DNA of 64,000 nt from Gracilariopsis chorda (lineage: Eukaryota; Rhodophyta; Florideophyceae; Gracilariales; Gracilariaceae): positions 62,001-126,000 of the forward strand of contig NBIV01000050.1 of NCBI GenBank assembly GCA_003194525.1, written 5' to 3'. Shown here in pieces: positions 10,345 to 54,007 of the stretch. A program made the translations under genes and the position numbers. Below the pieces are notes generated by a model. The model was not told the origin of the DNA and made no database searches. It worked only from the letters and a program-made list of their open reading frames with translations. Positions within the stretch are counted from its first letter, which is position 1; every line of letters begins with the position of its first letter.

Positions 10345-10742
10345 CATCTCAAGAAGCGCGACCACGCGAGCTGCGCACTCCGGCGCGCCCAATGAGAGCG
10401 CACAGCGTGTCCACGTTGCACGGCCGTCCACGTGGCGACGCCCCATTGCGCGTGCGTCATTTGTGTGCCATCGCGCTTCAACTCGCACATGCGGCATGTG
10501 CATCGTCTACCATGATGCTTGCGCTTCGCCACACCTCGTCTCCGACCGCAGCACGCACTTGCACGTCCCGTTGCGCGCCGCCCCGAACGCGCCGCTCGCC
10601 ATAACACACAGCGCGCCGCCCTCGCGCCTCTGCAAACGTCGCCGTCGTCGTCGTTCGCCATCCGCACCCCCCGCACCCTCAATTCGCCTTTCGTTTCGCC
10701 GCTCAATTCGTCGCAGTCGCCGCCTTCTTCGCAGTCGCCGCC

Positions 10743-11954: not shown

Positions 11955-12075
11955 GCAAAAGTCCTGGAGCGAGCTGCCGGTACATCCGCATACTTCGCCA
12001 TGGGCCATGGAGCAAAAGTGTTTAGTTCTTTGTTTTTTCTCTTCTCTTTTTTTTTTCTCTCCGTGCCACACATGC

Positions 12076-19929: not shown

Positions 19930-21890
19930 TTCAGGATCCAGCCTAGTGTGTGATGGTCCGTATGCAGTGTGAACCGTATGCCTTCCAAATAAGGACGGAG
20001 ATGATGGATGGCCCAAACTACTGCCAAACATTCCCGTTCGGTAGTAGAGTAGGCCCAATTGGGCTTAGATAGTGAGCAGTTCCAGTAACCAATCGGAAGA
20101 ACGTCGCCCTCAGGCTGCTTCTGGAGGATAAAGCATCCGACTTGGGTATTGCAAGCTCCCGTGTCCAGGACGTATCTGTGACCGTTTCGGGAAAGTGCCT
20201 GTATAGGCGGTCGTATGAGGCATTGGCCTAGTTTGTCTTATGCTTCATACTCCATATCGGTCAGAGTTTCGAACTCGAATGGTTGGTTTTTTTCCATTTT
20301 CCGATTCAGCGGGCTGGCAATGAGCGCGAACGCCTCAACAAACTTGCGGAACACATTACAAAGGCCGAAGAAGATCGTAGCTTCGTCCGGTTTATGGGAG
20401 GTTTCGCTTGTCGCAAAGCGTCGCAAGCTTTCCGAATACCTGCATTTTGCCCGGATGGATAATATGACCAAGATAGTAGATCGCTTGGTGGAAGAAATAA
20501 CATTTCTCCAATCGCAGCTTAATTACTGCGGAACGGAGCAGTTCCAATACGGTCTGTACGTGTTCGAAGTGCTCTTGAACTGATCGGGAATATATAATGA
20601 CGTCGTCTAGGTATACTAGAGCAAATTGCCATTTAACCCGCGAAGGGATGATGTCGAGCGCCCTCTGGAAGGTAGCCGGAGCATTCTTGAGACCGACCGG
20701 CATTCTAATGTAGCGGAACAAACCCATGTGGGACGTAAACATTGTTTTGTCCCGGTCGGTCTCGTCGACTTCGCATTGCCAATAACCGCTATTGGTGTCT
20801 AAAGTAGTGAATACCACTGCATCCCCTAAGGAGTCGATGCACTCATCCATTCTCGGTATTGGGTAAGTATCCCGTACGTTCATCGCGTTGAGGGCGCGGT
20901 AGTCAACTCAGAAGCGCAGAGTGCCGTCCTTCTTGGGTGCGAATACGACAGGACTTGCCCATTCTGCGGACGACGGCTCTATTACGCCGCGCGGAGTTGC
21001 TTTGTTACCTCTTCCCCTTCCAGTTCCCTTCGTTTCTGTCCCGCTCGGTAAGGAATCTGGAAAATGTGTTTGGAACCCTCTTCTAAATGTATGCGGTGAT
21101 TTGCAATGGAGATGGACCCCAAGTGTCCATCATCCCACATATCCGAAAACGGTTCCAGAAAGTCGGTAATTCTTTCCCGTTCGGTCTCATACTCTTCTCC
21201 TATACGGACTTCCTTTATCCAATCATCAGCTTTGGCCGTGTCGGACCTTTGATCCTGGTCGGTTTGATTGGTATTAGCCTCCCCCCTTTAGTTTCGTCGT
21301 CCTCGATGAACGGAGACGGGGAAATTAGGGCAATCGGGGCGGGAATGGCGTGCCTGACGATGGTGTTCTTTGCCAAATGGATGGGAGCTTGTCCGAAGTT
21401 GGAGACGAGGACTCGGAATGACCGGTTAGGTATAAGCTCCATGACGCCATTGACCATGAGCATAAGGCGTTTCTTGACCGTTTTCGGGTTGAGTTGGAGA
21501 AATGAAAGTCCTACAACGTTTGCGATTACTTGTACTTCTGCTTGGGTTATGGGCGGTATACTGACCGCTCGGGTTAATCGAATCTCGTTAGAGATGGATT
21601 TGTCCGTTGTCGGGAAAGATTCATAAACATTATTAGTTTGAAACCGTGCAGTTGCCGAGAGCAGGGCCACCGGTCAGGAATGGTGGAAAGCAACTTGTTT
21701 CCGTTGGGGGTGTATGGCCGTCACGTACTTGTCGATGAACGTTGTTTTCAACAAGCACGGTGTGGCTAGGTTTGTGGAGACTAGAAAATGGTCCCATACT
21801 CTCAGGCTACCGATTCGGATAAACAGGTGGATGACTCCGAAAGTCCGCATACGGTTACAAGACGCATCTGTATTATTTGGATGCGGTCTC
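19930..21890 (-). pseudogene. Remnant Ty3/gypsy element D (protease tail, RT, RNase H)
   Basis: Read on the minus strand from right to left it carries the end of a retropepsin domain (about 21890-21680, TFIDKYVTAIHP), then the protease-RT spacer (VLVSNFGQAPIHLAKN). Reverse transcriptase follows, with the block RDTYPIPRMDECIDSLGD and an intact YLDD catalytic motif (YLDDVIIYS), then the thumb and connection, and the start of RNase H (PIGYWN, ERECLAVVWAIHHLRPYLEG, LHTDHHTLGWILNLA). It then stops matching. Frames change several times and stops interrupt it. It is a more diverged family than elements A-C and was cut on its right by the insertion of element A at 21891. No LTRs of its own are seen in the window. 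Confidence 0.88.
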
Positions 21891-22721
21891 TGAAGTGCAA
21901 CGCCCTCAGGGAGGGATTCTTGGTACTTGAATGCTTTCCCGATATTATCGGTTGTGTAGTGTGTATATGAACTACGCCCCACAATGGTGGATATGGACAC
22001 GTGGGACACAGTTTTGGGTCAATTGGCGGTTGGCCACAGTAGTGGATGTTGCCACGAAATGTGGAGTATTTCTAATAATTTTAGTTAATTGTATTTATTA
22101 TTTTTACACCCATTTCTGGGAAGTTAGTACTTAGTGCGACGGCGCACTGCCGTCGCACCAGTAAAGCTTCCCCAACAAGGGACCCCAACCTGGGGAATTG
22201 GCTCTAGTTGTTACCGCTTGCGCGCGTGCTCTACTCCTCCTTGGAGGGAAACGCCGTGAACCACGGGACATCTAACCCCCTTGCACATCTAAAGGGACCC
22301 ATCACTGGGAGTATAATTGTTCCAATTGCATTGGTGTTTCGCCCTGTATAGGGATATTGTTACCGGCATCGCCGTTCGCCCCCGTCGCTCCTGCGACTCA
22401 TTTCGTCCTCTCTTCCTCCTCTTCGCCCTTCCGTTTCCCCTTTTTAGGGTAGCACCTCCCGCTATCCGCGGCCCTCGTGTGCGCATCCACTCACACACCC
22501 CCACTTACGTGGAAACATACCTCTACTGAGGATCACACACTCACGCGGATACCGATTCTTCGCTTTCACCTCCCTGCGCAAGTCGCGACAGGTGTCCCTG
22601 GTCTTACAAACCGGATTCGCCGTGACACCCCTGGGAGGGCTCTACCCAACTAGATTCACCTCGTGAGAGGAAGATCCCGAACGTCTTTCGATGTTTTTCA
22701 CCTTTGGGGCATTGCACCACA
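21891..22721 (+). repeat. 5' LTR of element A (831 bp)
   Basis: Starts TGAAGTGCAA and ends TTGCACCACA, an inverted terminal pair with TG...CA. The start is fixed by comparison with the copies at 43341 and 54064. The first 300 bp is nearly identical to the 43341 copy; the right half is clearly diverged from both other copies. An AT-rich stretch (about 22073-22110) could serve as the LTR promoter. Confidence 0.88.
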
Positions 22722-29000: not shown

Positions 29001-30937
29001 TGTGGAAACAATTTTCTACTTGTCATTACCGACCGCTGTTCCAAGCTGGTGCGGACTGTCCCTCTTCGGAGGATAACCGCTTTCACGGTGGCCCAGGCTC
29101 TGGTGACCCACTGGATTTTTGTCTACGGTCCTCCTGTGGAGGTGCTCTCTGATAACGGGAAACAATTCGCGAGCAAGTTCTTCCAGGATGTTTGTCGCAT
29201 CCTGGATGTCAAGAACTTGTTCATGACTACCTATCACCCCCAGTGTAATGGGCAAGTTGAACGGTTTAACCGGACGTTACTCGCGGCGCTACGTTCCTAC
29301 GTCGCTGACCACCCAAAGAATTGGGATCTCTACGCTGACGCGTTAACCTTCGCGTACAATACGCAGGTACACTGGACTACCGGAGTTTCGCCATTCGAGT
29401 TGGTTCTATCTAAAACACCCCCGCCTGTGGCACTGGAACTCCAAGCTACCTTGGACAATTTCCCATCAGTGGGTATCTACCGGCAGAAATGGAAGCAATG
29501 GCTTTCCAAGCTGGTCCCGGCTGCGCGAAAGTCTATGGCACGGGCCCAAGCCGCTTACAAGCGGGCTTTTGATGCTCGCTTGCGAGGAAAGACCCCCCGA
29601 ATCGGGCAAATAACTACGTCTTCATCAGGAAGGAGTACTACAACCCGGAACGGGAGAAGCGTCATAAACTCTCTCCTGTGGCAGACGGACCCTTCAAGGT
29701 CATCTCTTTTAATGCCGACACTGTCGTTGTAGAGATAGGCGGAGCACACGAGCGGATCTCCAGCGATCGTGTCGTGCTGGGCCCCCCTCCCTCCTCAGAG
29801 GTAATCCTGGATTCAGGACATCCCGTTTCTACGGACTCTGCAACACCGGAATCCTCCGGGAGTACTAGGCCTACGGTACTACCACACCCCAGCCGGGGAC
29901 TCTCAGACCTACCGACCCTGTCGGACTCACCGGCTCAGCCGGGTAATATGGCCCTCTCAGCGTCCGCCCCTACCACGCCCGCCCCCCTGGCGCGAATTTA
30001 CACCCGCCAGGCGGGAAATGTTATCCCTTATCCCGCCGCTCCGTCTAAGGAGGGCGAGGAGAACACTCGTTTTCGAGGAACGATATCGCCGTCACAACGG
30101 GAAACACGTAACATACGGAACACTGGTGCGCAAGCGCCGGAAACGCCTCCCGTCGTCGACGGAATCGAATCCCTCGTTCCGGGGAATAATTTGCGCCAAC
30201 TTCCGCAACGCTGCGGGGAAGAACCGAGAAACTCGAAAAAGCGCGCGCCATTGCACGCTCGAAACCGGTCATACCGGACACTGCTCCCCCCCATGTAGAC
30301 GGTGCACCGCAATTAGCGGCCAAGCCCCTGAAAAGGGTATCATCGGCACCTGCCCGGCACCCCCCAAAGGGGAATATTGACCAAAATACCGGTGTACCGG
30401 AGTTAGCCCCAGGCAACCCGTCAGTAGCCGGGGACACCACGGCGTCGCCGGAACGTATGGTGCAGAGCGCTCGTGCGCCTGGCAGGGAGGCGGTTTGCCA
30501 TCCAATCACCGCGTCGCACACGACCCCCCAGGGGATCGAGGAAACGCCGATTCCGCAGGAGCAGTCATCTTCCCGCAAACTCGCGGTTCGTGAGCTCAAC
30601 CACGAAGGCGGAGCCCAAGTTCCCCGCAGACTGGCGGTTCGCCCGCAATACCGCGAAAGCGGAAACGACCCTGCCCCAATGGGGGAATGACTTGGCGGTT
30701 AAAACCATGACGCCAAACACCCTCTTGAGGGATATCCTCGCGCACGAGCAGTGGCCGCTACCACAGCGCACGGCAACGCCGGAGTTATCGCCGAACATCC
30801 TGCTGAGGGACATTATAACGCACCGCGGGCAACCCTCACAAGGGAGTACAACCACCACCCGGCACGGCCGGCAGGTCTACGAACGAGAGTTCGTAGTAGA
30901 CCGACTTGGCGGACAAACCTGGGACCAGGATGGTATT
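26045..30937 (+). pseudogene. pol of element A: protease, RT, RNase H, integrase, linker, start of chromodomain
   Basis: Begins MAKRNYKVYADLG as in B and C. Domains in order: retropepsin (VLDTGAGPN, about 26128), spacer, RT (27100-27900; DTYPIPRMDECIDSLGD, YLDDIIIFS), RNase H (28030-28390; YTDYSSLRWLM, DALSRLP). The integrase follows (28740-29300) with an HHCC zinc region, D in IDILGPL, D in LSDNGKQF and E in NGQVERFNR, then a long low-complexity linker. The chromodomain is cut after DGI by element B and resumes at 41122. Damage: frameshift near 26900, TAG at 27531 (Gln in C), TAG at 27762 (Glu in C), TGA at 27852 (Arg in C), frameshift near 29610, and further stops in the linker. Confidence 0.9.
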
Positions 30938-31491
30938 TGTGGTATACCCACTACGGCCAAGTGGCCACTCGGTAGCAGTGCGGGTATCCGCAGAGAACAC
31001 CCCAAGGGAGGGCAGGGTGTGCGTGCCTTGCGAGCACAGTAACAGGGAGCCTTGGCGAGGTGTGGCCGTTAACGGCGAGTTGTATGTATCGGTGGTTGAC
31101 ACCCACGAGAGTTGTAGCTAGCCCGGAGGTCCGGTTAAGGCTCGCGAGTCTAGGAACTCAAGTGGTCGTCGAAGCTTGTCTTCTCTTTACTGTGAGCTCG
31201 CCCGCCGGCGTCAGCTATGTATAGCCGGCGTCAGCTATGTATAGCCGGCGGCCAGGCGCCTCTAAAATAGCAGCATAAATATATAAATAAATAAATAAAT
31301 ATCCCGATAACTCGGTGCAAGCGCCGTGGCAAGCCAACCTCCAGAACAACCCAGGTCGGCAACGTGTACAGCAGCGTCGCTACTCATATATCTCCGGCTA
31401 CCCCGGTCCCCTATGCTTAGTCACATATGAGAACAATCCCCCTACTTAGCGGTGAAACCGCTTCGGCGCGAAAAACGCTGCGGATACTACA
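30938..31491 (-). repeat. 3' LTR of element B (554 bp)
   Basis: On the plus strand it starts TGTGGTATAC and ends GATACTACA; in element orientation it starts TGTAGTATCC. It differs from the right LTR by a tandem duplication of a 20-bp segment (CGTCAGCTATGTATAGCCGG, about 31206-31245) and a few substitutions. An AT-rich ATATATAAATAAATAAATAAATA block (about 31278-31301) reads in element sense as a TATA-rich promoter candidate. An ATG at 31427 opens a frame that runs on into the antisense ORF. Confidence 0.95.
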
Positions 31492-31505
31492 TATCCCCCC
31501 CGTTA
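31492..31505 (-). other. Polypurine tract of element B
   Basis: Directly inside the 3' LTR, the element-sense sequence is TTAACGGGGGGGATA followed by the LTR start TGTAGT. Elements A and C have the same G-run plus ATA immediately before TGAAGT. This fixes gag-pol orientation independently of the coding regions. Confidence 0.8.
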
Positions 31506-31549
31506 AGCGTCGACGTCCTCGTCGTGTTCAGGCACTTAAGCGCATCGTG

Positions 31550-33223
31550 ATGTCTCACTCTCCTCCCCTTCCTGGTTCGCCAGACCATCGATCCGTTTGT
31601 TATTCCACTCGCTCACGAGACACGCCTTCGATGAACTCGAATCTCCCGCTGTACGTGAACACTCCGACTCCTGGTGTCGCTTCCGGTGGCCCGGCTCCCT
31701 ACTCTCAGACTGCGCTGTTGCCGGCTCGCAACTCCTCCCAACCTTCCAACAACGCGGTCGTCCGCCCTCCCCGTTTGGGTAATCGCTCGTTCCCGAACCC
31801 ATCGGACTTCGTCGGGCTTTCGCCTATCGATCATCCTGCCATCTTCGCAGAAGCCCCGTGTTTCGATCCACACTCCGTTCGTGACGATGAGGTCATCAAT
31901 CGATACGTGGTGGCCGGACGTCTTCCTGACGGTCTTCCTTTCTTCGCGATTTACACGGATGATTGGCTGGCGCATTGTGCGCTTCCTGATCATGCGATAT
32001 CGCGCTTTGGTAACGAAACCATCGGGCAAGCCCACGTGTGCTTCACCAAGCTGATTTACCAGCGCCTTCGACGTGTTATCGGAACTGTCCCTCTGGACGA
32101 TGCTTACGAATTCGACGCCTGGGCAGCCAGAACGAACGGTGAGGCGTACGCATACTGCGACAACCTCGGAGACCTCCAGACCCGTCGTTGGCGGGGACTC
32201 CGCGATGTTTGCCAGGAGGCCCTGTGCTTCACCCAACCCTTACTTCGCGCGGAGTTCCGCTACTTACGTAAGCGTAACATCCCCTTCCGGGAGAACGCCC
32301 GATGGGAGCGTCGAACCAGGTCCCGAATGGGATATCTCGTCCCATACCAGATGGTGGAAGTCGATCGTGTTCGTCACCGTGCGAGGATTGGGCGCTATAT
32401 TCCGATTCCAGATCACTGGGCTGCCATCGAAGTTCCTCGTGGTTGTGCTGTGGAGCAACCTCCGGTGTTGACGTATCTAGGCTCACACCTGGTGAATGAT
32501 CCGTATTGCGGTCTTTGGGTCGTGGCATTCACGGAATTCATCGCGAAGATGGCAGTCTACATCCTTTGGGACGCTTACGACGTATATCGGATTTGGTATA
32601 TCAGCCCCTTGGCTCGGCAATACGCGAGGTCACTCGACTTATCCGTTGTGCTTGGGTCACGTGCAAACCAGGATGATTTCCGACACGTCCTCGACGTCAT
32701 GGACCAGGTGAACTGGGATCAGGTTCCAACTGAGCAGCAGCAGCGCGGTGAGCGTCGGCGTCAACGTGAGTATTCGCCAGGGCGAACCGCAGAGGCGGGT
32801 GACTTCATTTGGTATGACCCCTGGACGCGCCAGCACATTTCCACAGAACAAGCAGCTCATCTGCGACAGAATCCGAAGCCGTTGCCAACAACACAACCCA
32901 CTGGCTATGCATTCGAGCCGGCACCGGCGCATGTAGATGTCCTTACGGACGAAGAACAGCAGGTGCCGTACGAGAACGAACCATATGAGATGGAGCAAGA
33001 TGTTCCAGTTCCGGAGGATGATGTAGCGGTGGCGCCTCAGCCAGTCGACACCGACTATGCGATGCCTAACGAGGCGACTGTGTCAAGCGAGGTGGAGCTC
33101 GGAATTCTGAGGAGGTTCCTCGAAGACGTGGGGATTCCATCGGTTCTAATCCGAGGTGACCGTGACGGCATGGTTCAAAGTATGAAGCTCCGATTGAGCG
33201 GACAGTCCATGGATGGCGCGTGA
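31550..33223 (+). CDS. Antisense ORF of element B, intact; unknown retrotransposon-encoded protein
   Basis: An uninterrupted frame on the strand opposite gag-pol, in the space between the chromodomain stop (33369) and the 3' LTR, so it is not a shadow of another gene. The ATG at 31550 gives 557 residues; an in-frame ATG at 31427 inside the LTR would give 598. Homologous frames occur in elements A (43282-41462) and C (54007-52185), with shared blocks such as CQEALC, LRAEFRYL, PPVLTYLGS, a GDFIYFDPW/GDFIWYDPW motif and a C-terminal helix RFL..VG. The N terminus is Ser/Pro-rich, the centre (about 110-440) looks globular with many Trp and Tyr, and the tail is acidic. No transmembrane segment, zinc finger or catalytic motif is evident, and I recognise no family. 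Confidence 0.8.
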   Translation: MSHSPPLPGSPDHRSVCYSTRSRDTPSMNSNLPLYVNTPTPGVASGGPAPYSQTALLPARNSSQPSNNAVVRPPRLGNRSFPNPSDFVGLSPIDHPAIFAEAPCFDPHSVRDDEVINRYVVAGRLPDGLPFFAIYTDDWLAHCALPDHAISRFGNETIGQAHVCFTKLIYQRLRRVIGTVPLDDAYEFDAWAARTNGEAYAYCDNLGDLQTRRWRGLRDVCQEALCFTQPLLRAEFRYLRKRNIPFRENARWERRTRSRMGYLVPYQMVEVDRVRHRARIGRYIPIPDHWAAIEVPRGCAVEQPPVLTYLGSHLVNDPYCGLWVVAFTEFIAKMAVYILWDAYDVYRIWYISPLARQYARSLDLSVVLGSRANQDDFRHVLDVMDQVNWDQVPTEQQQRGERRRQREYSPGRTAEAGDFIWYDPWTRQHISTEQAAHLRQNPKPLPTTQPTGYAFEPAPAHVDVLTDEEQQVPYENEPYEMEQDVPVPEDDVAVAPQPVDTDYAMPNEATVSSEVELGILRRFLEDVGIPSVLIRGDRDGMVQSMKLRLSGQSMDGA

Positions 33224-33368
33224 TTCCCTTAGCTACCCTCCTCTTCGGGGCCTCGTCCCGTTGTAGCTTGTGGTGAACACAGTAAATGTTGTGAGTTCTT
33301 CTCATTTTTCTTTCTTGTTTCCTAGTCTTCGTATTTCCACGCTTCCAGCTTCGTGTTCTAGGGGATTC

Positions 33369-36300
33369 CTATTGTAGTAAGGCGATCTCGGCGGATGAGA
33401 TATCAACGGGTAGGGGTAGACGCTTTCGTCGATGATAGCGCGTTATGTGTGTACGAGGTAAATGCCAGATAGGCTCCCAGGTGTCCTGGCTTGGCGGGTA
33501 GCAGTACCAGCGGCACTTGTACTTCATGAGGCCATCCTCGTCCAGAGCGTGAGCCACGATGCATTCCAGTACGCTTTCTTCCACGTCACCGCGTTCGACG
33601 TAGTCTTCCCGCACGGCTAGGCGGCGTGGTTCGTTCCGGTTCTCCGGGCCACTATCTTTAACCGACTTTTGGTCTCTCCCTTCTCCCGCGTTTATCGCGT
33701 TTCTTCTGTTATTAGCTATTACGGTGGTCCGTGTTACAACTCCCTGCCGTGGAGGTGATCCAAGGTTCTTACTTGATTCCGGTTCGGGCCGGTTGGTCGG
33801 CGAAGACGGAGCTTCTATGCCTACCGTACGCCTAAGTGTATCCCATGTGGGAGCTGTTCTGTTTTTCGAACCAACCTCGTCCTCTTCGTGCGCATCCACG
33901 GTTACCTCCGTTTCCTTCAGCGGGGTGTAATCGGCTTGCCATGTGCGGTTGGGTCCGCGGATACCATCTTCTCCGGATGGAGGTCAACTGTGGACGAGTC
34001 GGAATTTTCCGGGTTTCCCGGGCGGCTATTGTTAGCTCCACTCTTGTCGGGGCTCCCCAGTTTCTCCTGTCCGTTACCAACGGCTGTCAGGGGTGCGTCG
34101 TTGCACGGCACTCCGGTGACGTCACCTTGGTGAACAGTTCTCGGTTTGTCGATTATTCCACTGATCCTGCTGTCAGGGTGCCGCTCGGGAAGCGCCGTGG
34201 GGGGTCCACTGTCAGACGGACCAGTCGTGATGTTCGGCGCCCATGGAGGCGGAATGTCAGCCAATCCCTGTTCATCCAGTGGCGTCGACTGTAGCTCCCG
34301 CCCCGTGTCTTCACGGCTTGTCATTGGGGGTTTTCCGATCGCTTCCCGCTCTGGAGTGTTCTCCGACTGCCTTGGGGCTAAGACAACGCGGTCGCGCGAT
34401 AGCCGTTCGACGTCATCGTCTTTTTTCACGACCACCGTCTCCGAGTTCATCTCGATCACCGTGAAGTGTCCCGTAGTAATCGGGGACAGCTTATGACGCC
34501 CTTGTTGATATTTGCGGCCCTCCGCAGTAGTGACGTCTGGCTTTTCCACACGTACAAAAACGTAGTCCCCAATTCGGATGTCCTATCGGTGGGCCCGTAG
34601 AGCGCGGTCGTAATTCCGCTTGTAACGCAACTGGGCCTTCTCCATTTCCACCGCAGCTTGTTCTGCCCTGTGGCGGAGTTTGTTCCTCCACTGGAGGTGA
34701 AATTGAGCCGGCTCCGGCGTGTCTGTTCCATCCGATGGGAACATCCGCAAAGGTAGTGCCGGAGGGCGGCGACTAAAGACCAGATCAAATGGAGCTATCT
34801 TCGTTGTCGAATGGACCTGCGTATTATACGCGTAGCACAGCGTATCTGTGTATAGGTCCCAGTCCTTGGGGTGATCTTCAACGAACTGCCGTACAGCGGC
34901 GATTAGGGTGCGGTTGTAACGCTCCACTTGACCGTTAGTCTGCGGATGATAGGTCGTGGTGAACACGTTCTTCACGCCCAGGATGCGACACACGTCCTGG
35001 AAGAACTTCGCAACAAATTGCTTCCCATTATCTGACAACAGAGTTTCCGGAGGGCCATAATTGTAAACCTATTCTTTCACGAAGGCACGTGCGATCACGG
35101 CTGCAGAAATCCGCTTCAGCGGGACCGTTTTGACCAGCTTAGAAAAGCGATCCGTGATGACCGGTAGGAAACAATTCCCTCGCGGTGTGCGAATGAGCTT
35201 CCCAAGGATGTCAATACTGACGTATTCCAGTGGCGCTATCGCCGGAAATAGCCTCAATGGGCGTTTCTTCTTCCACAGTTTGATGCGACTCTTCGCGCAC
35301 GAAGTACAAAGTTTAGCTGTCGCATGGCAATCCATCGCCAGGGTTGGCCAGTAAAAGTCCCTACGAAGGGTTAAGTATAACTTTGTCCCGCCTGGGTGAC
35401 CAGAGAGCTGGGAGTAGTGGGCTAGGTGTAGTACTCTCCCTTTTAGAGACTGTGGGATCACAATCTGGTGCAACGCTTCCACTGAGCGTGTCACGACGCC
35501 GTGGTCGTCGAAATAAAAGGGCAACCCTTCCCCCCCGTTAAGGCGCGAGCGGATTGCCGCGCAAAAAGGGTCCTTTTGTTGCTCTGCGAGGAGTTCCTCA
35601 AAGGGGATACGCTCGAGCTGCTCCGATGGTTCGGTCTCTGTGGATTGGGTGACCAATACATTGAAGGCGTCCTCCGTGTCGTCTGAATGATCAATGGGGC
35701 TGTCCAAGTTGTCTCAGTTTTCCGAACTGCCCATTTCAGCCAGTAGGCATGGGATCTCGTCATCCATAGCGACCTGGGTTTGACCCAGTGTTTCTAAGCG
35801 TGACAACGCGTCAGCGTGAACGTTAGCGGAGCCTTTTTTATACTTCACCTGGAAGTCGAATTCGGAAAGGCGTAGTCGCCATCGCATCGAACGCCCGGAA
35901 GGATCCGTTATTGACATCAGCCATCTGAGGCACGAATGGTCCGTGTGGACGGTGAAGGATTCTCCTTGAAGGTAAGGTCGGAGGGTCGTTAGTGCCCAAA
36001 CTACTGCAAGGTTTTCCTTTTCTGAGACTGAGTAGTTGCGTTCCGCTGGTTGCAGCGACCTAGACCAGTAACCGATGGGTTTCCGTTCCCCAGTGGGGTA
36101 CGTCTGAAAGAGGGCACACCCTACTTGATAATCACTGGAGTCATTGTCGACCGAGTAATGTAGATCTTGTTTTGGGAGAGCCAGTACTGGCGCCGATGTT
36201 AGCACGTCCTTGAGCGTTTCAGAGGCGTTCGTCTCGGCTTCCCCGAACTCTTCCAACCTAACCGGTTGGCCTTCCTTCAAGATTGCGTTGAGAGGCGCGG

Positions 36301-38071
36301 ATATATGTGAGTATCGCGGGACGAACCGTCGATAGACGTTACAGACTCCTAGGAATGATCGCAGTTGTGTCTGCGTGGTCGGCGGGATCATTTTGCGGAT
36401 TGCCGCCGTGGCCACCTCGTCCATCTCCAGGCGACCTGGTTTGATCAGGTGTCCCAAATACTTGACCTTATCCGCGAACCATTCGCACTTCTTGAGCTTC
36501 AGGGTGATTCCTGCTTCCTGTAACTTCTTCAGAACCTCTTCTACGTCCACGAAATGGTCTTCCATGTTCTTACCAAAGATAATAATATCGTGCAGATAGA
36601 CGAGGCAAGTCCTCCACTTATACATCGATAGGATGATATCGATAGTAAGTTGGAACGTGGCTGGGGCGTTGGTGAGTCCAAAAGGCATGCGATTAAAACG
36701 GTATAGACCGGCATGGCATACAAACGCAGTTTTGTCGCGATCTTCTTCCGCTATTGGCACTTGCCAGTAACCCCAATTCGCGTCGAGCGTGGTGAAGACG
36801 ATGGCCTCACCAAGACTGTCGATGCACTCATCCATCCTGGGGAGCGGGTAAGTCTCCGGTACGGTAACAGCGTTTAGCTTCCGGTAGTCCATGCAGAAGC
36901 GTAACGAACCATCCGCCTTCGGAGCGAGGACCACTGAGGACGCCCAAGCCGATTGGGTGGGTTCTATTACCCCTTTTTTCAGCATGGAGTCCACATGTTC
37001 CTGTTCGATCTGTCGAGTCTGCGGTCCAGCACGGTATGGATGCTGCGCAATGGGCCGGGTGCCCGGTAGAAGGTCGATATGGTGCTCGGTAGCGGTGACC
37101 TCACCTAACTTTCCGCTCCACATAGGAGAATACTTCCGTAGTAAACTACGTAGTCGTTTCCTATACTGTTCCGGAATGAGGGCCAGATCGATGTCGTCCA
37201 CCGAAGGAGAGTCAACTGTGGTCAGCCTGTTTGGGTTCTGCTCCATTGTATGACTGACAACTGGTGACCCAGATTCGCCTTCATTCTCTGCTTGCAGATC
37301 CTCGGCTGGTAGCGAGACTCCAAGTACCTCCGCCAACTTAACGTGGGTCGGTATTATTACCGTGGGATGTGGCAGCGCATTCCCAATGATTTGGTTCTTG
37401 AAAAGCCTCACCGGCGAGGTGCTAAAGTTGGAGACCAACATCCGAAAGGGTACGTCTGGCGTAACTTGAGCGACGCCGTTAGCGGCTTTCACTGCGGACA
37501 TTTCGTCTACCTTAGAGATTGGCTTTATCATGACCAGCCCGTGTCGCTTTGTTACGAACGTTATCCATGTCTGTGACTGCGGAGTTAACTCCACCTGCTT
37601 CTCTACCCTAATCTTAGGGGATACTCTGCCCTTAGCGGCGTTGTGTTGCGACGGTAGTGCCACCTGGCCCTTGGTTAACCTCGAATGTCGGATAATCGGT
37701 ACCAATGTGCCATCAACCATTTCGACCTCTCGAGTCCTGGGGCGAATACCCTCTATGAATCTATCACAGTAATCACAGCCCAGAACCACTGGTACTGCAA
37801 GGTGCTCGCACACCACGAATTTCACGAGAACGACGTGATGTCCTAACCTGACGACCATCCGTATAGTTCCACTTACTGTCAATCTGTTCCTATTTGCGTC
37901 CCGGATATCCGGTAGTGTCTCCTGAACAATTCCAGGCGTGTCCTCCGGGGATAACTCCAATTTTCTGATGAAGTTCAGCCCAGCGCCGGTGTCCAATACG
38001 GCCAGTTTGCGCCATAGGAGAGTCTTAGTTGCGCCGATATCGGCATATACCTTATAATTTCGTTTCGCCAT
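33369..38071 (-). pseudogene. pol of element B: protease, RT, RNase H, integrase, linker, chromodomain
   Basis: Starts MAKRNYKVYADIG (ATG 38071; the frame is open to 38149). Order: retropepsin (VLDTGAGLN), RT (DTLDANWGYW region; catalytic box reads YLHD, see findings), RNase H (HTDHSCLRWLM, ADALSRLE), integrase (HLAHYSQLSGHPGG, C..C, IDILGKL, LSDNGKQF, TNGQVERYNR), GPY-like region (RDRVVLAPRQ), linker, chromodomain (YKCRWYCYPPSQDTWEPIWHL, about 33500-33420). Defects: TGA at 35714-35716, TAG at 35069-35071, TAG at 34583-34585, and a frameshift between about 33900 and 33919. The first 811 codons are uninterrupted. The gag and pol frames differ and are separated by about 216 nt. Confidence 0.92.
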
Positions 38072-38286
38072 CACCAAGATGTCGTCGCTACGCCTCCCCG
38101 GGCAGACATATCGTCGCCATGGGCGGCGCAGTTCGCAGTCAAACTGCACATTCTCGCTCGTCGTTTGCGACTTCCTTTCTGGCCGCAGAAGTATCTTTGG
38201 CCTCCATTCCCGGGAGCGAGGACTGTCGCCTTCCCCGGCCGGCGTGGCGGGATCGACCTCCGCCGACCTCGCGAGGGCTCCCTCGT

Positions 38287-40431
38287 CTAGTTTCCCGCAT
38301 TCCTCGGGGCGGACGGACCCGCGTTGGAGGGGGTATTCCTCACCTCATGAGAACGTCTTTGTAATGAGGGTGGGGGCCTCTGCGGGGCCCTCTGCGCGTT
38401 ATCAGTGGCCTTCCACGACTTTGCGTTCCAATACGCGTTAGCGGGAATCCTGTCTCGCTCCTCTGCTGTCAGAGACTCATAGTTCGAGACAATCTTGTAC
38501 AACTCTCTGGCAGTGAGAAGGCATTCGGGGGCTGTATGATGCTTCCCATAGCAGAAGTAACAAATAAGGGCTTCCTTAGCGCTCGTTGGCGGTACCGCCG
38601 TAGGACGATACGCCAGCTGGTTATTGACCCAACCGGGCTTCTTAGAGGTGAACCCACCCAGTGGGGGAACCATTCCCGCTCTGAGCGGCCCTCGACCATT
38701 GTTCATCAGCATGAGGTCATCCTCGGCATGTGAACCAGTGTTCGGAAGGTCTGACATCGGGACTGATTCCCCTCCTTCGCCCAGGTAGAGGACCGCTTCC
38801 AACTGGTTCTGATCAGCGTTCTGTCTTGGCAGGGTAGAAGCCCTAGATTCCGCAGAGGACTGCATCAACATGGCGGCTGCTTTGACTCCGCGCTTGGGGG
38901 TTTCCTTACGGATCTCCGTGGAGCTCAGTCGACGTGTGCCATCAGAGCGAGCACGAACGGCATCGCCTTCCGCCTGTGCAAATTGGACCAGTTCCAAATA
39001 GGTCATACGTCCGTGCCGTTCACGATAACGAATCACCAAGGACTTGGTTGCCGCAGTTAACCCATCTGCGAATAGTGACATCTTCTCTTCAGTCGAGTAC
39101 ACATTCCCACATCTTGTGGCTGCCTTATTCAGCCTCGAGCTGTACTCCCTCTTGTCCTCTAGGGGTTTCTGTACCACGCTTCGAAGGGCGTTGGTTGCCT
39201 CTCGAATCGCGTTGGAAGTCGCGTAACTCCTCAGTAAATACTGAACTGCCTCTGGCCAACGGCACACACCACCTTCATCCGAAGATAAGGAGCCGCTGAC
39301 GGCGCGATACTGTTCCAGGGCGAGCCCGACAAGGAAGTGGGGAAGAGCCAAGAAAGCCTGAGATTCGCTGATCTCCAATGTATCCGCCTCCGTCACAAAA
39401 CGGGAAAGGAAGTCAAACACCATAATCGGGTCCTTCCCGTCAAAACTTAAATCGTCGGCGCCGACTTTCATTCGCCGGATGTGATCCTTTACCTTGGCGG
39501 TTTCGTGACCAGTTCATTTCGACTTCCTGATCTTCAGGCGATATAAATGATAGTTGAGGATCCTCTTATAGAGGGAGTTCGTGCAGGACAGGGGTTTGAG
39601 TCCCTTATGACGCGGGCCCATTCTCCGTCGGGCTAAAGCCGTTCCTCGGCGCCCCTTTCGCCCTCGACGATCACCGTCATCACTCGAGCTTTCGTCAGTA
39701 GACGTTTCAGAATCGGAAGGATCCGAATCAGAGTAGTCACTTTCGGAGTCCTCTGTGTCTGAGTGTCGGCGCTTCCTCCTCGAAGACTTCTTCTTCTCCT
39801 TAGAGTTCGCCTTACTCGAGTGAACCTCTCCCGCTTGGGTCTCGGCCGGGGGCTGGTCTTCAGCGACTGCCATCGCTCCGGAGGGCGGTTTGGCCGCCGA
39901 CTGGGCTATAGCATTTTCCAACCGCTCCAGACGTGGGTTTACACGGGTGAGGACTTCCTCAACACTGACAGGCATAGCTGGAATGGCAGAGGTGGCCCTC
40001 TGGGCTTCCAGGACTCCGTTCAAGTCTTCCCGGAGGGTCCGTACCGACTGATAAATGTGCTCCTGGGGGGCTTCGCGGGGCTTGAGGACTGCGGCCTCAG
40101 CCTGAACCAACTCGAGTGTTGAACTAACCGAAGTTAATCTTCTTTCCAATTCTTCCAGACGGAACTTCTGTGTCTCAGATTCCGTACGGAGAAGCTGCAA
40201 CTCAGCGCGTAACACATCCTGACTCACAGGGGGCGTAGGCACCGGGTTGGTAACTTCCAATTGAGCCGTGGTCGGCGTAGGGACCTCGGAGGCGACTCCA
40301 GGAGTTCCCGTAGACCGAGAACGAGCTCGAGCCTGCTCATATAAGCGGTTGCCGGCCTCTGTAAAGGTGGCTAGGCGGGCTGTTGATGAACCCAGTTTGC
40401 CGGAGCCGGACTCGCTCCTAGTTGTCGTCAT
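38287..40431 (-). pseudogene. gag of element B (one in-frame stop)
   Basis: ATG at 40431 (MTTTRSESGSG). The N-terminal 200 residues are helical, with a likely coiled coil (LLRTESETQKFRLEELERRL). A strongly acidic/Ser stretch follows (DSESDYSDSDPSDSETS), then Arg/Lys-rich RRGRKGRRG, a capsid-like region (FLALPHFLVGLALEQY, VQYLLRSYATSNAIRE) and one CCHC knuckle CYFCYGKHHTAPEC. The only disruption is TGA at 39514-39516 (context AAA TGA ACT), possibly CGA to TGA. The frame is the same on both sides of the stop. Confidence 0.88.
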
Positions 40432-40563
40432 GGGAGTTCCCAAAATCGGGTTGTCCAAACAAAGAAGGGGATCCTAGCGAGCTGGACCAGAACTGAATAA
40501 CAGGTTGCCAAAAACCGTACAACAACCCGAAATGTCGGTCACAAGTCACTCGATCCTAGGCTT

Positions 40564-40579
40564 CTAAGTCGGGAGACCA
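40564..40579 (-). other. Primer binding site of element B
   Basis: In element sense, AAG after the 5' LTR then TGGTCTCCCGACTTAG, matching the sites of elements A and C. Confirms that the right-hand LTR is the 5' LTR. Confidence 0.7.
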
Positions 40580-40582
40580 CTT

Positions 40583-41116
40583 TGTGGTATACCCACTACG
40601 GCCAAGTGGCCACTCGGTAGCAGTGTGGGTATCCGCAGAGAACACCCCAAGGGAGGGCAGGTTGTGCGTGCCTTGCGAGCAAAGTAACAGGGAGCCTTGG
40701 CGAGGTGTGGCCGTTAACGGCGAGTTGTATGTATCAGTGGTTGACACCCACGAGAGTTGTAGCTAGCCCGGAGGTCCGGTTAAGGCTCGCGAGTCTAGGA
40801 ACTCAAGTGGTCGTCGAAGCTTGTCTTCTCTTTACTGTGAGCTCGCCCACCGGCGTCGGCTATGTATAGCCGGCGGCCAGGCGCCTCTAAAATAGCAGCA
40901 TAAATATATAAATAAATAAATAAATATCCCGATAACTCGGTGCAAGCGCCGTGGCAAGCCAACCTCCAGAACAACCCAGGTCGGCAACGTGTACAGCGGC
41001 GTCGCTACTCATATATCTCCGGCTACCCCGGTCCCCTATGCTTAGTCACATATGAGAACAATCCCCCTACTTAGCGGTGAAACCGCGTCGGCGCGAAAAA
41101 CGCTGCGGATACTACA
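40583..41116 (-). repeat. 5' LTR of element B (534 bp)
   Basis: Plus-strand ends TGTGGTATAC and GATACTACA, followed by the target duplication GTATT at 41117-41121. Nearly identical to the left LTR but without the 20-bp duplication. Confidence 0.95.
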
Positions 41117-41121
41117 GTATT

Positions 41122-41271
41122 CTACAATACCGCGTCCGCTGGTACGGGTATGACCCCAGTGGGGATACGTGGGAGCCAATCGAACACCTCCCACGGTCGC
41201 AGGTCGTGCGATACCACCGTCAAACGGAAACTGCAGCTCCAGCCACGCTGGTAAATGCCCAAGGTGGGTAA
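41122..41271 (+). pseudogene. Second half of the element A chromodomain
   Basis: After the GTATT duplication the frame continues as LQYRVRWYGYDPSGDTWEPI and EHLPRSQVVRYH, exactly the part of the chromodomain missing at 30937; element C has the uninterrupted version at 51840-51960. Aromatic cage candidates (Tyr/Trp of RWYGY, W of DTWEPIEHL) are kept. Ends at TAA at 41269-41271. Confidence 0.9.
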
Positions 41272-41461: not shown

Positions 41462-43282
41462 TCACTCACCCCCATCGTCCGGGGCGTAACCACCGGCAAG
41501 GCGGTAAGCCAACGCGTCCGCCATGGCGGTGACATCCCCCGATACCTCGGCAGCGCTTAGACCAGCACCCCGGAGAAAACGTGCGATGATCTCGTTTTCA
41601 TTCGCTGTCACCCCGCTGGGGATAGAAGGTCCGGCACTCGCTGCCGAAGGGTCAGCAGCCGGCTCGGCCGGAGGTACCCCCTCTGGGGAAGCTTCCGCGC
41701 TAGCGCTAGTTTCCTCTACGTCCATCTCCCCAGGTTCTTCCGGTTCGTTATCGACCATTGGGTCATCCCCGCCGTATGTGCGGTAGTAGTCATTGGAATC
41801 GACGTTCCCCACCGGGTGGTCTTCCGGCACATGCCGGGGCGCATCGCGAAGCTCGCGCGCCTCCTCGGAGGAAATCTCCCGGAACTCCCAGGGGTCGAAG
41901 TAGATAAAATCCCCCGCAAGGGCGGTGTTTCTACCCAGTCCCGGACCACCGGTGTTACCGCTGCCGCCGTCCAGACGACCGCTTTGCTCCAGCGAGACCT
42001 CATTCCAGCTAACGCTGTCGATGTACCCAAGCAATTGGAGGACGTCTTCATTGTTGGCCTGGCCCCCAAAGGGGATGCGAAGATCCAAATTGCAGATCGC
42101 TGCCCGCACACGCGGTGGAAGGAACCAGAGACGATACTGGTCGTACGCCTCGTTGAGGATATAAGCCGCAGTGCGGGCCGCCCACTCCGTAACCACTACG
42201 GACCACCACCCCGACCGGGAATCCTGCATGAGCAGCGAACCGAGGTACGTAAGTACCGGCGGGAGTTCTATGTAGCACCCCCGGCAGGCTTCATGGAAGC
42301 ACCACCACTCGCGGAGTGCTACATACCGACCTAGTAGGTGAGGCGGCGCAATCCGCTCTATCTCCACGTTGTGATACGGGATGAAATACCCGAATCGGGA
42401 TCGCCAGCGCCACTCATAGCGGACGAAGTTTTGGAGAAAGTTGGACCGGTAGTGCCGGGGAAGATACCTGAACTCGAAGGGCTTCTTGCCGCGCTGCGCG
42501 GAAATTCCTCCAAGCGAGTGTCTCGAGGCAGAACAGTTCTCGCCGTACCCAATCTCTCTGCGAGTGCGGAAGTGGCTAACGTCGAAGCCAAACTACGGCG
42601 GGACCGGTACATCGAATGGAGCCCGGCTCTGCCGTTGGTATGCCATGCGTGTCAACGCGGTCTGCGCCGCAGCGACGGTCTCGCCCGAATTCCTTCGGAG
42701 GTGGTGATGCGGAATCGCAATCCGGTGACGCCAATCCCACGATGTGGTGACTGCTCTGGGCAGATCCCCCGGAAGGGTGTCTGAGCCATCCGCATAAGCG
42801 GTGACCAATCCCTCATTGAGGACAGCGCCCGGGTGAAACCACGGGGCAAGGCGCAGGCGCAACGCGTGATTCCAATTCATCTGGTTGAGCCCCACCAGGG
42901 TGTTGTAAGTTGGCCAGTTGGCCACCGGAGCGGTTCCGGAGGATCCCAACGAAGGTGGTAGTGCGAAGAGATGGTCGGCTGCAGCAGCCACATTTCCCGG
43001 TTGTACAGGAGGTTGATCGCCCTGAGGCAGAGGAACCGACCGGAAACCGGTGGTGTATCGCCCGAGAGACCTCAGAGGTTGGCTGTTGTTGTTGATGTTG
43101 TTGTCGTTGTTAATTTCTCCCTCTTCGAGGGTGGTTGTTGTTGTTTATTGGAGTGCGCTCGGTGACGAGGAAGTGCGGAGGCGAGGAGAGGAAATAACAG
43201 CTCCAGTAGCAGGGGGTGGTGAATCTGGTGCGGAGGGATTTACCGGAGAACCGGAGACGGCGCACGCGCTTTTATCACCCAT
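41462..43282 (-). pseudogene. Antisense ORF of element A (broken)
   Basis: Homologue of the 31550-33223 ORF and of the copy in C. An ATG at 43282 starts MGDKSACAVSGSP; a TAA at 43145-43147 follows after 45 codons in an AAC-rich stretch. The middle is carried by 42991-42593. A short deletion near 42480 (between the EAL and EFRY blocks) shifts the frame. The last 300 codons (42367-41462) are open, with PPVLTYLGS, GDFIYFDPWEF, an acidic DNEPEEPGEMDVEE stretch and the C-terminal helix NEIIARFLRGAGLS. It converges with the chromodomain end (41271), leaving 190 bp between. Confidence 0.85.
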
Positions 43283-49600: not shown

Positions 49601-52075
49601 TTTTCAAAGCTTGTTTGGACTGTACCTCTTCGGAGGATAACCGCTTTCACGGTGGCCCAGGCTCTGGTACCGCACTGGATTTTTGTCTACGGTCTTCCTG
49701 TGGAGGTGCTCCCCGATAACGGACGGAAGTTCGCGTCCAAGTTCTTCCAGGATGTTTGTAGCATCCTGGACGTGAAGACCTTGTCCACGACTACCTACCG
49801 TACCCAGTGTAGTGGGCAAGTCGAACGGTTCAACCGGGCTTTGTTGGCCTCCCTCCGTTCCTACGTTGCTGGTCACCCCAAAACTTGGTACTTGTATGCA
49901 GATGCTTTAACATTTGCATACAATACACAAGCTCACCGGACTACCGGAGTGTCACCGTTCGAATTGGTTCAATCTCGTCCACCCCCACCTGTGGCGTTAA
50001 AATCCCAAGCCACCTTGGACAATTTCCCATCTGTCGGTCGCTACCGCCAGGAATGGAAGCAATGGCTTACTACACTGGTACCCGCAGCGCGGAAGTCTAT
50101 GGAACGCGCGCAAGCCGCGTACAAGCGGGATTTCGACGCTCGTTTACGAGATAATGCTCCCTGCGTACGGGCTAATACGTACGTCTTTATACGTAAGGAA
50201 TATTATAACCCGGAACGGGAGGAGCGTCACAAGCTTTCGCCTGTGGCAGATGGACTGTTTAAAGTGGTATCCGTTAACTCCGACACTGTCGTAGTGGAAA
50301 CGGGCAAGGCACAGGAGCGGATTTCCCGCGATCGTGTTGTACCTGCCCCTCCTTCCTCGTCTGAGGTCGTCCTGGAAACAGGGAAACCCGTCTCTACGGA
50401 CTCAGCAACGCCGGAAACCCCGGGACTAAATAGACAGGCTACTCTACCACACCGCACTCGGGGCCTCTCAGATTTACCGACTTTGTCGGAACCCCCGGCT
50501 CGGCCGGATCGTTCAGGTCCAAACGGACCCTTCTCTACTCCTAACACTACCGCCCCTTCGGCGCGCATTTACACCCGCCATGCGGGATATCCTACTATTA
50601 CTCCCCTTGCTCCGTGTAAGGAGGGGGAGGGGACCTATCGCCACGCTGGAAATTTATTACCGTCGCAACGGGATTTGAGTCCTGAAACACGGAAGGTCGA
50701 TGAAGCCTCGCAATCCCCCACACAGGGTTCCGGAACGACGCAGCTACGCGGTATGATACGGGAGAGTGGACCGACATCGCAGTCCGTACCCCTGAACCAG
50801 GGCAATTCCCTGAATCAGGATAGCGATATCGTTTCGCAGACCCCTCACCAGGGTGTAGTCGCAGAACCGTCGTCGACGTAATTTCCCGCCAAAACGGATT
50901 CCTCAGCACCATCCACATCGCTGGTAGCAGGCAACGCACGCCTTGGAAAATCAGCAACGCGGGAAAGTGAAAAGACCCTCTTGAGGGAGGAAGGCAGGAA
51001 TGCACATCTTGCAACTCATGTCCCTAGCTCTACAGCCCCGGACCTGAGAACCATTCATAACGGGAATGTTGTCCGAACTTCGGAGATAGAAGTGCCAAAG
51101 TCCCCGCGCAATCACGGTAATATACCGAGCGTCTCGGAAAAATCCGGCCTCGTCGCCAGGGTTAAACCGGTCGTCCCGGATGATGCACCTCTTGAGGAAG
51201 ACATCACACCTCAATTAGTGGCAAAGTCCCCGAACAGGGTGTCCACGGCGCCAGCTGTCCACGCCCCATCAGGGAGTTTGAGGCAACACACCGGAGCACC
51301 GGAAGTAACCACCGGATACCAGGTGCCAACACAGCAGTGCACGGCTCAGCAGGACAGTGTAAGGCCCAAGCCAAGGGGGGCAGAACGCAAGAAGGCGGTT
51401 CAGAGCCACATGCCGTGGGAGTCACGTGAACGCACGGAGATTGTGCGCCCCACACCAATCACCGCGTGACGCGGAAAGCCCCACCAGGGAGTGACCTCCA
51501 CAACTTCGCCAAAGCGGCAAGATGCCCGCAAGCTCACGGTTCGACCGGACTACCGTCAACATGGGACGGAGGACCCCCGCAAACTAGCGGTACGACCCAA
51601 TTACCGCGGTACGTGGCAACCGTTCCACGAAGACACCCTCTTGAGGGATATTATTCCGCACTCTGCGCCGCATCCTCCAAGCGAAGCCCGCACGTTGCAT
51701 CCTGACGAACCCCTGAAGGGAAATATCCCGTCCATCGGGCAGCCCCTCACAAGCGAGGTCACCATAACACGGCAAGGCCGGCAGGTATACAAACAAGAGT
51801 TTGTGATTGACCGAATCGTCGGGCACACCTGGAATCAGGAAGGCATTCTAAGATACCGCGTCCGTTGGTACGGATATGACCCAAGCTGGGACACCATGGA
51901 ACCCATCGAACACCTCCCTCGTTCGAAGGTGGTCCAATATCACCGCAGCGCGGGTACTGCAAATCCAGCTACGCTGAGCAACGCCCAAGTGGGACAAAAA
52001 CGCCGCGAAGCCAGGGAAGGTAGGAAAGAAGGAGTACACCCCCTTTTGTATGGACTCCGTCAAGGACGGGAATGA
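46611..52075 (+). pseudogene. pol of element C: protease, RT, RNase H, integrase, linker, chromodomain
   Basis: Starts MAKRNYKVYADLG. Domains: retropepsin (VLDTGAGPN), RT (47760-48330, intact YLDDIIIFS), RNase H (48590-48950, YTDHSSLRWLM), integrase (49300-49850; HLSHYAKLGGHVGG, IDILGPL, LPDNGRKF, GQVERFNR), GPY-like RDRVVPAPP, a linker of several hundred residues, chromodomain (51780-51960, YRVRWYGYDPSWDTMEPIEHL). Defects: frameshifts near 47075, 47305 and 49445; TAA 48951, TAG 49101, TAA 50879, TGA 51467. In the linker the motif K/RLAVRPxYR is repeated. Confidence 0.9.
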
Positions 52076-52184: not shown

Positions 52185-54007
52185 TTAGAGGTTCGACCCC
52201 TCCCCATCGTCCGGGTTGTGACCACCCGCAAGGCGGTAAGCCAAGGCATCCGCCATCGCGGTGGCGCCACCCGAAACCTCGGCAGCGCTTAGACCCACTC
52301 CGCGGAGGAAGCGGGCAATGATATCGCTTTCATTGACTGTACCCCCGCTGGGGAGTGAAGGCCCGGTGCTCGCCGTCGGAGGACTGGGAACCGGAGGCAA
52401 CCCCTCGGGGGATTCGTCCACGACCATGTCGGCAACGTTTAGTTCCATGTCCCCGGCTCTTCGGGTTCGTTATCGACCATCGGGTCATCCCCGCTATACG
52501 CGCGGTAGTAATCGTCGGAATCGACGTACCCAATCGGGTGATCGTCCGGCACATGCCGTGGTGCGTAGCGGAGTTCCCTCGCCCCCTCGGAGGAATTCTC
52601 CCAGAACTCCCAGGGATCGAAGTAGATGAAGTCCCCCGCAAGGGCGGTGTTTCTACCGAGACTCGGACCACCGGTACCGCCACCGCCGCCGTCAGGCCGA
52701 CCGCTCTGTTCCAGCGGGACCTTGCGCCAGTCAATACTGTCGATCAAACCAAGTAATTGGAGTACTTCGTCATTATTGGCAATACCCCCAAGGGGGACGC
52801 TGAGGTCCAGATTGCGAATGGTGGCCCGCACACGCGGTTGGATGAACCACAGTTGATACTGGTCATAAACCTCAGCGAGGATATATGCTGCAGTGAGGGC
52901 AGCCCACTCGGTTACGATTTCCGACCAAAGCCCCGACCGGGGATCCTGAATCAGAAAGGAACCGAGGTACGTGAGTGCTGGCGGGAGTTCACCGTAGCAA
53001 CCCCGGCAGGCCTCAAGTAACTTCCACCACTCGGGGAGTGCGACATACCGACCGTGTCGGTAAGACGGAGCAATCCGCTCAATCTCCACGTTTTGATACG
53101 GGACAAAGTACCTGAATCAAGATAGCCAGTGCCGTTCATAACGGATGAAGTTTTGGAGGAAGCTGGACTGGGACTGCCGATAAAGGTACCGGAATTCAGC
53201 CCGAAGTATCGGTCGTTCCCAACACAGGGCTTCTTGCCACGCAGCGGGAAAGTTCCTCCACGCGAGGGTTTCGAGGCTGCCCAGGCGTTCGCTGCAACCG
53301 ATTTTGCCGCGCGTGCGGAATAGGCTGACGTCGAAGCCAAAGCCGGTAGGCACTGGGAATTCGAAAGGTGCCTGGCTCTGCCGTTTATATGCAATCCGCA
53401 CCAGCACTGCATGAGCCGCAATTGTGGATTCTCCTGGGTTTCTTCGGATATGGTGCACCGGGATGGCGATTCGATGCCACCAGTCCCACGACGAGGTGAC
53501 GAAGCTGTGTATATCCCCGGGCAAAGTACTGGAACCATCCGCGTAGGCCGTAACCAAATCCTCGTTGAGGGCAGCGATGGGATGGAACCACGGCGCAAGC
53601 CGGAGCCGAAAGGCGTGACTCCAATTAATCGGATTAAACCCTACAAGGGCGTTATAAGAAGGCCAAGTCGCCACCGGGATCAGTCCGGAAGGAGCCACCG
53701 CTGGTGGAAGTTGGAACCCATGCTGAGACGCTGCGCCAATGTTGGCCGGCTGTGCCGGAGTTCGCTTCCCTTGTGGCAAGGGTACCGACCGGAAACCGGT
53801 TTTGAAGTTCCCGACTGGAGTCGGTCTTGGAGGCTGGTTGTTGCTCTTCATATTCCCCTTCGAAAGGGTGTGATCTGATTGAGTTGAGCAGGAAGAGGAG
53901 GAGCGTGCACGTGTGGAAGGCTGATTCGCTGCTTTTGCAGGAGGTTGTTTTTCTGAGGCAGAGGCATGACCAGGTGACCCGGAGAGATTTGGACTTTTAT
54001 CACCCAT
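52185..54007 (-). pseudogene. Antisense ORF of element C (one stop, one frameshift)
   Basis: ATG at 54007 (MGDKSPNLSGSPG); the frame is also open upstream through the polypurine tract into the LTR, to 54229. It runs 297 codons to a TGA at 53117-53119, where element A has CGA (Arg), continues in the same frame to 52439, and then a missing G in a G-run shifts the frame to the last 80 codons (to 52185). Shared blocks with A: SWDWWHRIAIP, RLAPWFHP, EALCWERPILRAEFRYL, PPALTYLGS, GDFIYFDPWEF, SDIIARFLRGVGLSAAEVSG. It ends 109 bp from the chromodomain stop, tail to tail. Confidence 0.87.

What the first reader, a model, noticed from the sequence alone, without database searches (positions are those of the whole stretch)
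31550..33223. A conserved long antisense gene in a Ty3/gypsy chromovirus lineage
Elements A, B and C each carry, between the chromodomain and the 3' LTR, a long ORF on the strand opposite gag-pol (A 43282-41462, B 31550-33223, C 54007-52185). It ends tail to tail with pol (about 110-190 bp gap), so it is not a codon shadow. The proteins of A/C and of the distant B share ordered blocks (CQEALC/WQEALC, LRAEFRYL, PPVLTYLGS, GDFI[YW][YF]DPW, a terminal helix). No family I know matches. Antisense genes are known in some plant LTR elements and, by architecture only, in deltaretroviruses; in a red-algal chromovirus this may be undescribed. Its Pro/Ser-rich N terminus, Trp-rich core and acidic tail give no function.
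Basis: partly seen in the sequence, partly recalled or inferred. Interest (0 to 1): 0.87.

Follow-up and report, generated by a model that had tools for sequence, protein, structure and literature searches.

The report
Antisense accessory gene in red-algal retrotransposons
A family of jumping genes in a red seaweed carries an extra, backwards-facing protein gene of unknown function that selection has kept working, which suggests that the jumping gene uses it, although some of its offspring have spread without it.

Summary
The antisense ORF is real and behaves as a gene. It is open in element B (30938-41116, minus strand); the A and C copies are decayed. The genome (very likely Gracilariopsis chorda) gives 135 matching rows (capped list) in at least five subfamilies. 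In 20 of 20 loci read with pol, and in the 40 of 66 subfamily-IV RT copies that have one downstream, it is antisense to pol. Between subfamilies synonymous change nears saturation while amino acids are held; five chosen subfamily-IV pairs give pN/pS 0.26-0.48, but many close pairs are near 1. Relatives occur in Agarophyton chilense and unnamed records. Pfam, PDB-sequence and Foldseek searches gave no usable match, though the core folds confidently (pTM 0.84). The layout is a known kind ('aORF-3R', plant elements and fungal Boty); the protein family is new to the libraries searched, and nine literature searches listed no red-algal case. An aORF-less derivative (1.8-kb deletion across a 9-nt repeat) matches at eight places on six contigs, so the gene is not needed in cis. 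Best reading: a trans-acting, probably nuclear, accessory protein. Transcription and function are untested.

The parts
31550..33223 (+). aORF of element B, intact, 557 aa (frame open from 31421)
30938..31491 (-). 3' LTR of element B (TG...CA)
   Evidence: 528 of 556 aligned columns identical to the 5' LTR, 8 mismatches and a 20-bp gap
40583..41116 (-). 5' LTR of element B
30933..30937 (.). target-site duplication GTATT, left copy
   Evidence: read from the flanks printed
41117..41121 (.). target-site duplication GTATT, right copy
   Evidence: read from the flanks printed
33372..33983 (-). end of B's pol with the chromodomain (PF00385, E 1e-8), in another frame than the integrase
34000..38149 (-). 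B pol: RT, RNase H and integrase; in-frame stops at 35716, 35071 and 34585
38287..39471 (-). B gag (Retrotrans_gag, E 1.7e-6)
41462..43282 (-). aORF of element A, decayed (two in-frame stops and a garbled stretch)
41119..41271 (+). rear part of A's chromodomain; element B sits inside the A chromodomain
52185..54007 (-). aORF of element C, decayed (stop in the middle, out of frame near its end)
51470..52075 (+). C pol end with chromodomain (E 1.7e-8)

Best explanation
The ORF is a protein-coding accessory gene of a red-algal, chromodomain-bearing Ty3/gypsy lineage, carried with the element since before the Gracilariopsis-Agarophyton split (coding gene of the element: shown or strongly supported, about 0.93; age: inferred from the tree, horizontal spread not excluded). 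It is most likely transcribed towards pol from a promoter in or next to the 3' LTR (inferred from position only). Its product has a disordered N terminus, a helical globular core unlike anything found in the PDB, an acidic disordered linker and two C-terminal helices. It most likely acts in trans, in the nucleus, on the element's own expression, integration or silencing (inferred, about 0.45). It is not needed in cis, because a derivative without it has spread.
For: 135 matching rows in the genome. Antisense and downstream of pol in 20 of 20 loci and 40 of 40 aORF-bearing subfamily-IV copies. Between subfamilies pS 0.65-0.75 against pN 0.24-0.49. Five chosen IV pairs pN/pS 0.26-0.48, p 0.005 to 1e-7; pol in one of those pairs 0.37. 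aORF and integrase distances correlate, r 0.91, 0 of 2000 permutations as high. Relatives in Agarophyton chilense. Confident core model. All 16 listed rows of subfamily V are free of stops (capped list). A shared aORF deletion at 8 places on 6 contigs. Analogy: Grande gene23 is nuclear and antisense-transcribed (PMC7264820, passages read).
Against: No transcript or protein evidence. A TATA-like site upstream on the aORF strand in only 6 of 12 stretches, at varying places. Within I and III, and in many close pairs of II and IV, pN/pS is about 0.6-1.1; B-L009 and L019-L020 are not significant. The nuclear reading rests on a basic block that lies inside the folded core and on sub-threshold domain hits that compete with unrelated ones. 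26 of 66 subfamily-IV RT copies have no listed aORF.
Confidence: 0.5

Rival explanations
1. Self-limiting factor: the protein restrains its own element family in trans, a copy-number control of the kind known for Ty1 p22 (recalled), so that copies that lose it escape.
For: aORF-less derivatives have multiplied; eight subfamily-IV stretches without a listed aORF were read, and seven show internal deletions that cut it.
Against: Selection keeps the gene in every subfamily met, and a group rich in intact copies (V) keeps it; a purely harmful gene would be lost.
Confidence: 0.2
2. Passenger: a gene captured from the host or another virus, with no role for the element.
For: No match to other element proteins was found; it is dispensable in cis.
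Against: Purifying selection at a level like that of pol in the pair compared; fixed place and strand across subfamilies; no relative seen outside the family, although the search is limited to proteins that share words.
Confidence: 0.12
3. Structural or envelope-like protein of the particle, made from an antisense message.
For: It sits where env sits; one hydrophobic stretch reaches a borderline mean hydropathy of 1.65 (1.86 in P0008).
Against: It is antisense, unlike env-like aORFs; the stretch carries conserved E and K or R, lies in a confident helix of the globular core, and the N terminus is disordered.
Confidence: 0.1
4. The antisense RNA, not the protein, is the function; the open frame is a by-product.
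For: Sense RNA would run through the aORF, so antisense RNA could pair with it (inference; dsRNA is discussed in PMC7264820, passages read).
Against: No overlap with pol; of six frames in three pairs the aORF frame has the fewest stops (0, 1, 0) and the lowest pN/pS; changes fall at its third positions, 291 against 144 and 91 for B-L011.
Confidence: 0.03

Closest known systems
aORF-3R genes of plant LTR retrotransposons: Grande gene23, RIRE2, Retand (TRP28), PvRetro13 (PMC7264820 and PMC11963269, passages read)
   Same: Antisense gene between pol and the 3' LTR, present in many copies, no clear relatives elsewhere, regulatory role suspected; Grande's product is nuclear
   Different: Retand is a non-chromovirus lineage (abstract; Grande and RIRE2 placed with it from recall), whereas these elements end in a chromodomain; no TRP28 match; gene23 and the others were not compared by sequence here
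brtn of the fungal element Boty (PMC7264820 and PMC8365987, passages read)
   Same: Additional antisense gene in an LTR element outside plants
   Different: Fungal; sequence not compared here
HBZ and APH-2 antisense genes of HTLV (PMC11963269, passages read)
   Same: Minus-strand gene near the 3' end; nuclear regulatory product is the working model here
   Different: Analogy of layout only; no sequence comparison and no expression data

Membership tests
Ty3/gypsy LTR retrotransposon | LTRs with a short target duplication, and RT-RNase H-integrase order with RT closest to Ty3 | tested here: met
   best PDB matches of B's RT are Ty3 (4ol8, 7q5b)
Chromovirus | Chromodomain after the integrase | tested here: met
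   PF00385 above cut-off in B, C, A (partial), L009, L014, L036
Chromovirus | RT within the chromovirus clade | not tested
   No reference RT set was built; brown-algal Gypsy elements with chromodomains fall outside it (PMC12477816, passages read), so this cannot be assumed
aORF-3R (antisense aORF between pol and 3' LTR) | Open frame antisense to gag-pol in that place, in most copies of a family | tested here: met
   B with both LTRs; 20 of 20 loci antisense and downstream of pol; 40 of 66 subfamily-IV RT copies
aORF-3R (antisense aORF between pol and 3' LTR) | Antisense transcript from its own promoter | not testable with these tools
   No RNA data at hand
Retand-type antisense protein | TRP28 domain (PF04195) | tested here: not met
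   Pfam-A scans of 20 and 13 members at E up to 1 list no such match
Grande gene23 or Boty brtn family | Sequence relationship | not tested
   Their sequences were not at hand
LEM/Ish1-like or PSBD-like helix-loop-helix (C-terminal unit) | Profile match above cut-off, and fold | tested here: inconclusive
   Ish1 in 2 of 8 tails (E 0.0039, 0.058) and E3_binding in 5 of 20 members (best 0.029), all below cut-off; other tails hit unrelated families as weakly; none in 13 environmental members; two helices at pLDDT about 66-76

The most novel reading that the evidence does not exclude
A previously undescribed, ancient accessory protein family with a fold not seen in the PDB, encoded antisense in red-algal chromodomain retrotransposons and acting in trans as their nuclear regulator; naturally spread aORF-less derivatives that exploit or escape it form a built-in gene-removal comparison.
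Probability: 0.35. Interest if true: 0.72.

Novelty: new variant of a known kind. Interest (0 to 1): 0.55.

Why it matters
Antisense aORFs of plant elements have long been known without a function (PMC7264820, passages read). Here is a separate case in red algae, with purifying selection, a confidently folding core that matches nothing searched, a subfamily rich in intact copies, and natural aORF-less derivatives in the same genome. That combination makes the question of what such genes do for an element testable by comparison. It also shows that such a gene can enter annotation as a host 'hypothetical protein' (BWQ96_08668).

Full report
WHAT IS THERE. The window lies in an unnamed 91.3-Mb genome of 1081 contigs. 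A protein recorded as BWQ96_08668 of Gracilariopsis chorda is found in it at 100% over 290 residues, so the host is very likely that red alga (Gracilariales). Element B (30938-41116) is a minus-strand Ty3/gypsy element. Its LTRs differ by 8 mismatches in 536 aligned bases plus a 20-bp gap, and it is flanked by GTATT duplications. It sits inside the chromodomain of element A. Its pol carries RT, RNase H and integrase, has three in-frame stops, and ends in a chromodomain that lies in another frame; in subfamily V (L036) one open pol frame of 1885 codons holds all of these, and the aORF of 609 codons lies 193 bp away. Between B's chromodomain and its 3' LTR, on the other strand, lies the aORF, intact at 31550-33223, its stop 145 bp from the pol stop. 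The A and C copies are decayed. In 17 of 20 loci where a chromodomain motif was found, the stop-to-stop gap is 136-243 bp in 15 and 577 bp in 2.

IS IT A GENE? In all 20 loci of 8 kb that I read, the aORF is downstream of and antisense to pol (L015 also holds a second pol piece on the other strand). Of 66 RT copies of subfamily IV (91% or more identical, from a capped list), 40 have an aORF within 15 kb downstream, all 40 antisense, 31 of them at 3528-3553 bp. Of the other 26 I read eight stretches: three share one deletion, four have other deletions that cut the aORF, and one (L042) gave no match to pol or aORF. Conversely, 24 of 64 aORF rows had no RT in the list.

CODON EVIDENCE. Between subfamilies pS is 0.65-0.75, near saturation, while pN is 0.24-0.34 among I-III, 0.32 between IV and V, and 0.46-0.49 from I or II to IV or V (nine pairs). 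I then tested eight chosen pairs for pS above pN. Five in IV give pN/pS 0.26-0.48 with p from 0.005 to 1e-7, and one in II gives 0.24 (p 0.003). B-L009 (0.84) and L019-L020 (0.79) are not significant. Pol of L027-L028 gives 0.37 (p 0.0007), against 0.27 for the aORF of the same pair; two II pairs of pol are not significant. The full table also holds many close pairs in I-IV at about 0.6-1.15, as expected of copies that drift after insertion. In three pairs tested in all six frames, the aORF frame has the fewest stops (0, 1 and 0; the one is in L021, which has stops) and the lowest pN/pS (0.32, 0.27, 0.43); the antisense frame that shares third positions is next (0.44, 0.42, 0.56), with 25-34 stops.

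INHERITANCE. Over 24 copies, aORF and integrase distances correlate (r 0.91, 0 of 2000 permutations as high), and both trees split I-III from IV-V. They disagree for the L019, L021 and L022 groups and for A, which suggests occasional exchange of the 3' module. Searches returned 27 protein records besides the window's own: six of Agarophyton chilense, one of G. chorda (the host itself) and 20 unnamed records ('ena' or 'lgn') whose hosts I could not learn. Their genomic context is unknown. In the tree of 29 rows the four A. chilense proteins used are sister to the I-III rows (fork 89/91) within a 100/100 clade; IV-V lies apart, with environmental lineages between. So the gene seems older than the split of these genera, unless it moved between hosts. 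Several long branches make the deeper order unsure, as the tool warned.

PROTEIN. AlphaFold2 with 24 sequences gives a disordered N terminus (1-67), a core, a disordered acidic linker and two C-terminal helices. The core alone (residues 68-455, 23 sequences) reaches pLDDT 82.7 and pTM 0.84. Foldseek on the PDB gives nothing for the whole and one meaningless match (E 8.5) for the core; BFVD (whole model) gives four at E 6.5-10; VIA gives none. That does not prove a new fold. The C-terminal unit has sub-threshold matches to Ish1 and E3_binding (their kinship to LEM and PSBD folds is recalled), but other tails hit unrelated families as weakly, and none of 13 environmental members shows them. A basic block of the RR-x-RSR type is seen in 8 of 10 proteins scanned; it lies in the core and may be structural.

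NATURAL LOSS. L035, from an array of three units on C3 spaced 8.8 kb, has an RT 95-98% identical to aORF-bearing subfamily-IV copies but no aORF beyond its first 60 codons. Compared with L027 it lacks 1.8 kb between two copies of AGAAGAAGG, from the gap behind the aORF stop to within the aORF's start; the pol stop is kept. L039 and L041, on other contigs, have the same junction, and their homology to L027 ends at the same 3' point (6545-6548). A 160-bp probe across the junction matches end to end, at 93-100%, at 8 places on 6 contigs; five of these were not read. Deletion between short repeats is typical of template jumps in reverse transcription (general knowledge). Its spread shows that the gene is not needed in cis; it does not tell help in trans from dispensability.

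MECHANISM. Shown: a conserved coding gene that belongs to the element. Inferred: transcription from the 3' LTR side; a TATA-like site occurs in 6 of 12 upstream stretches, at varying places. Inferred: trans action in the nucleus, from the analogy to Grande gene23 (PMC7264820, passages read), the deletion derivatives and weak protein hints. A self-limiting factor is the main rival.

KNOWN OR NEW. The layout is the aORF-3R kind (PMC7264820, PMC11963269, passages read), also reported for fungal Boty (PMC8365987, passages read). The TRP28 domain of Retand was not found here. Nine searches of the held library listed no red-algal case. I therefore call it a new variant of a known kind.

Noticed in passing
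G000 C3 (three places), C5, C398, C8:315143, C177, C57; L035, L039 and L041 read: A subfamily-IV derivative with a 1.8-kb deletion across a 9-nt direct repeat removes nearly all of the aORF and has spread to 8 places on 6 contigs.
   Followed up: partly
G000 C3:100585-119327 (L035 covers part): Array of three such elements spaced 8.8 kb; the 688-bp overlap of neighbouring units is 99.7% identical.
   Followed up: partly
L019-L025 groups; window A (41462-43282) against L036 and C: aORF and integrase trees conflict: L019 and L022 share 87% of integrase but 55% of aORF; A's aORF is nearest L036 (89%) while its integrase is nearest C (82%), which hints at exchange of the 3' module.
   Followed up: partly
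window 19905-21895 (-): Another, partial Ty3/gypsy pol, RT about 53% identical to B, next to A's 5' LTR.
   Followed up: no
window 9792-10604 (+): ORF with a weak T5orf172 (GIY-YIG-like) match, E 0.00019.
   Followed up: no
window 58160-59743 (+): Gene with a vanadium-haloperoxidase-type domain (PF22778) and DUF6851.
   Followed up: no
window 382-14461: Ordinary host genes: FAD oxidoreductase (382-1662), mRNA cap guanine-N7 methyltransferase (2238-3224), PAPS reductase with glutaredoxin (10743-11954), helicase and SPRY pieces (12076-14461).
   Followed up: no
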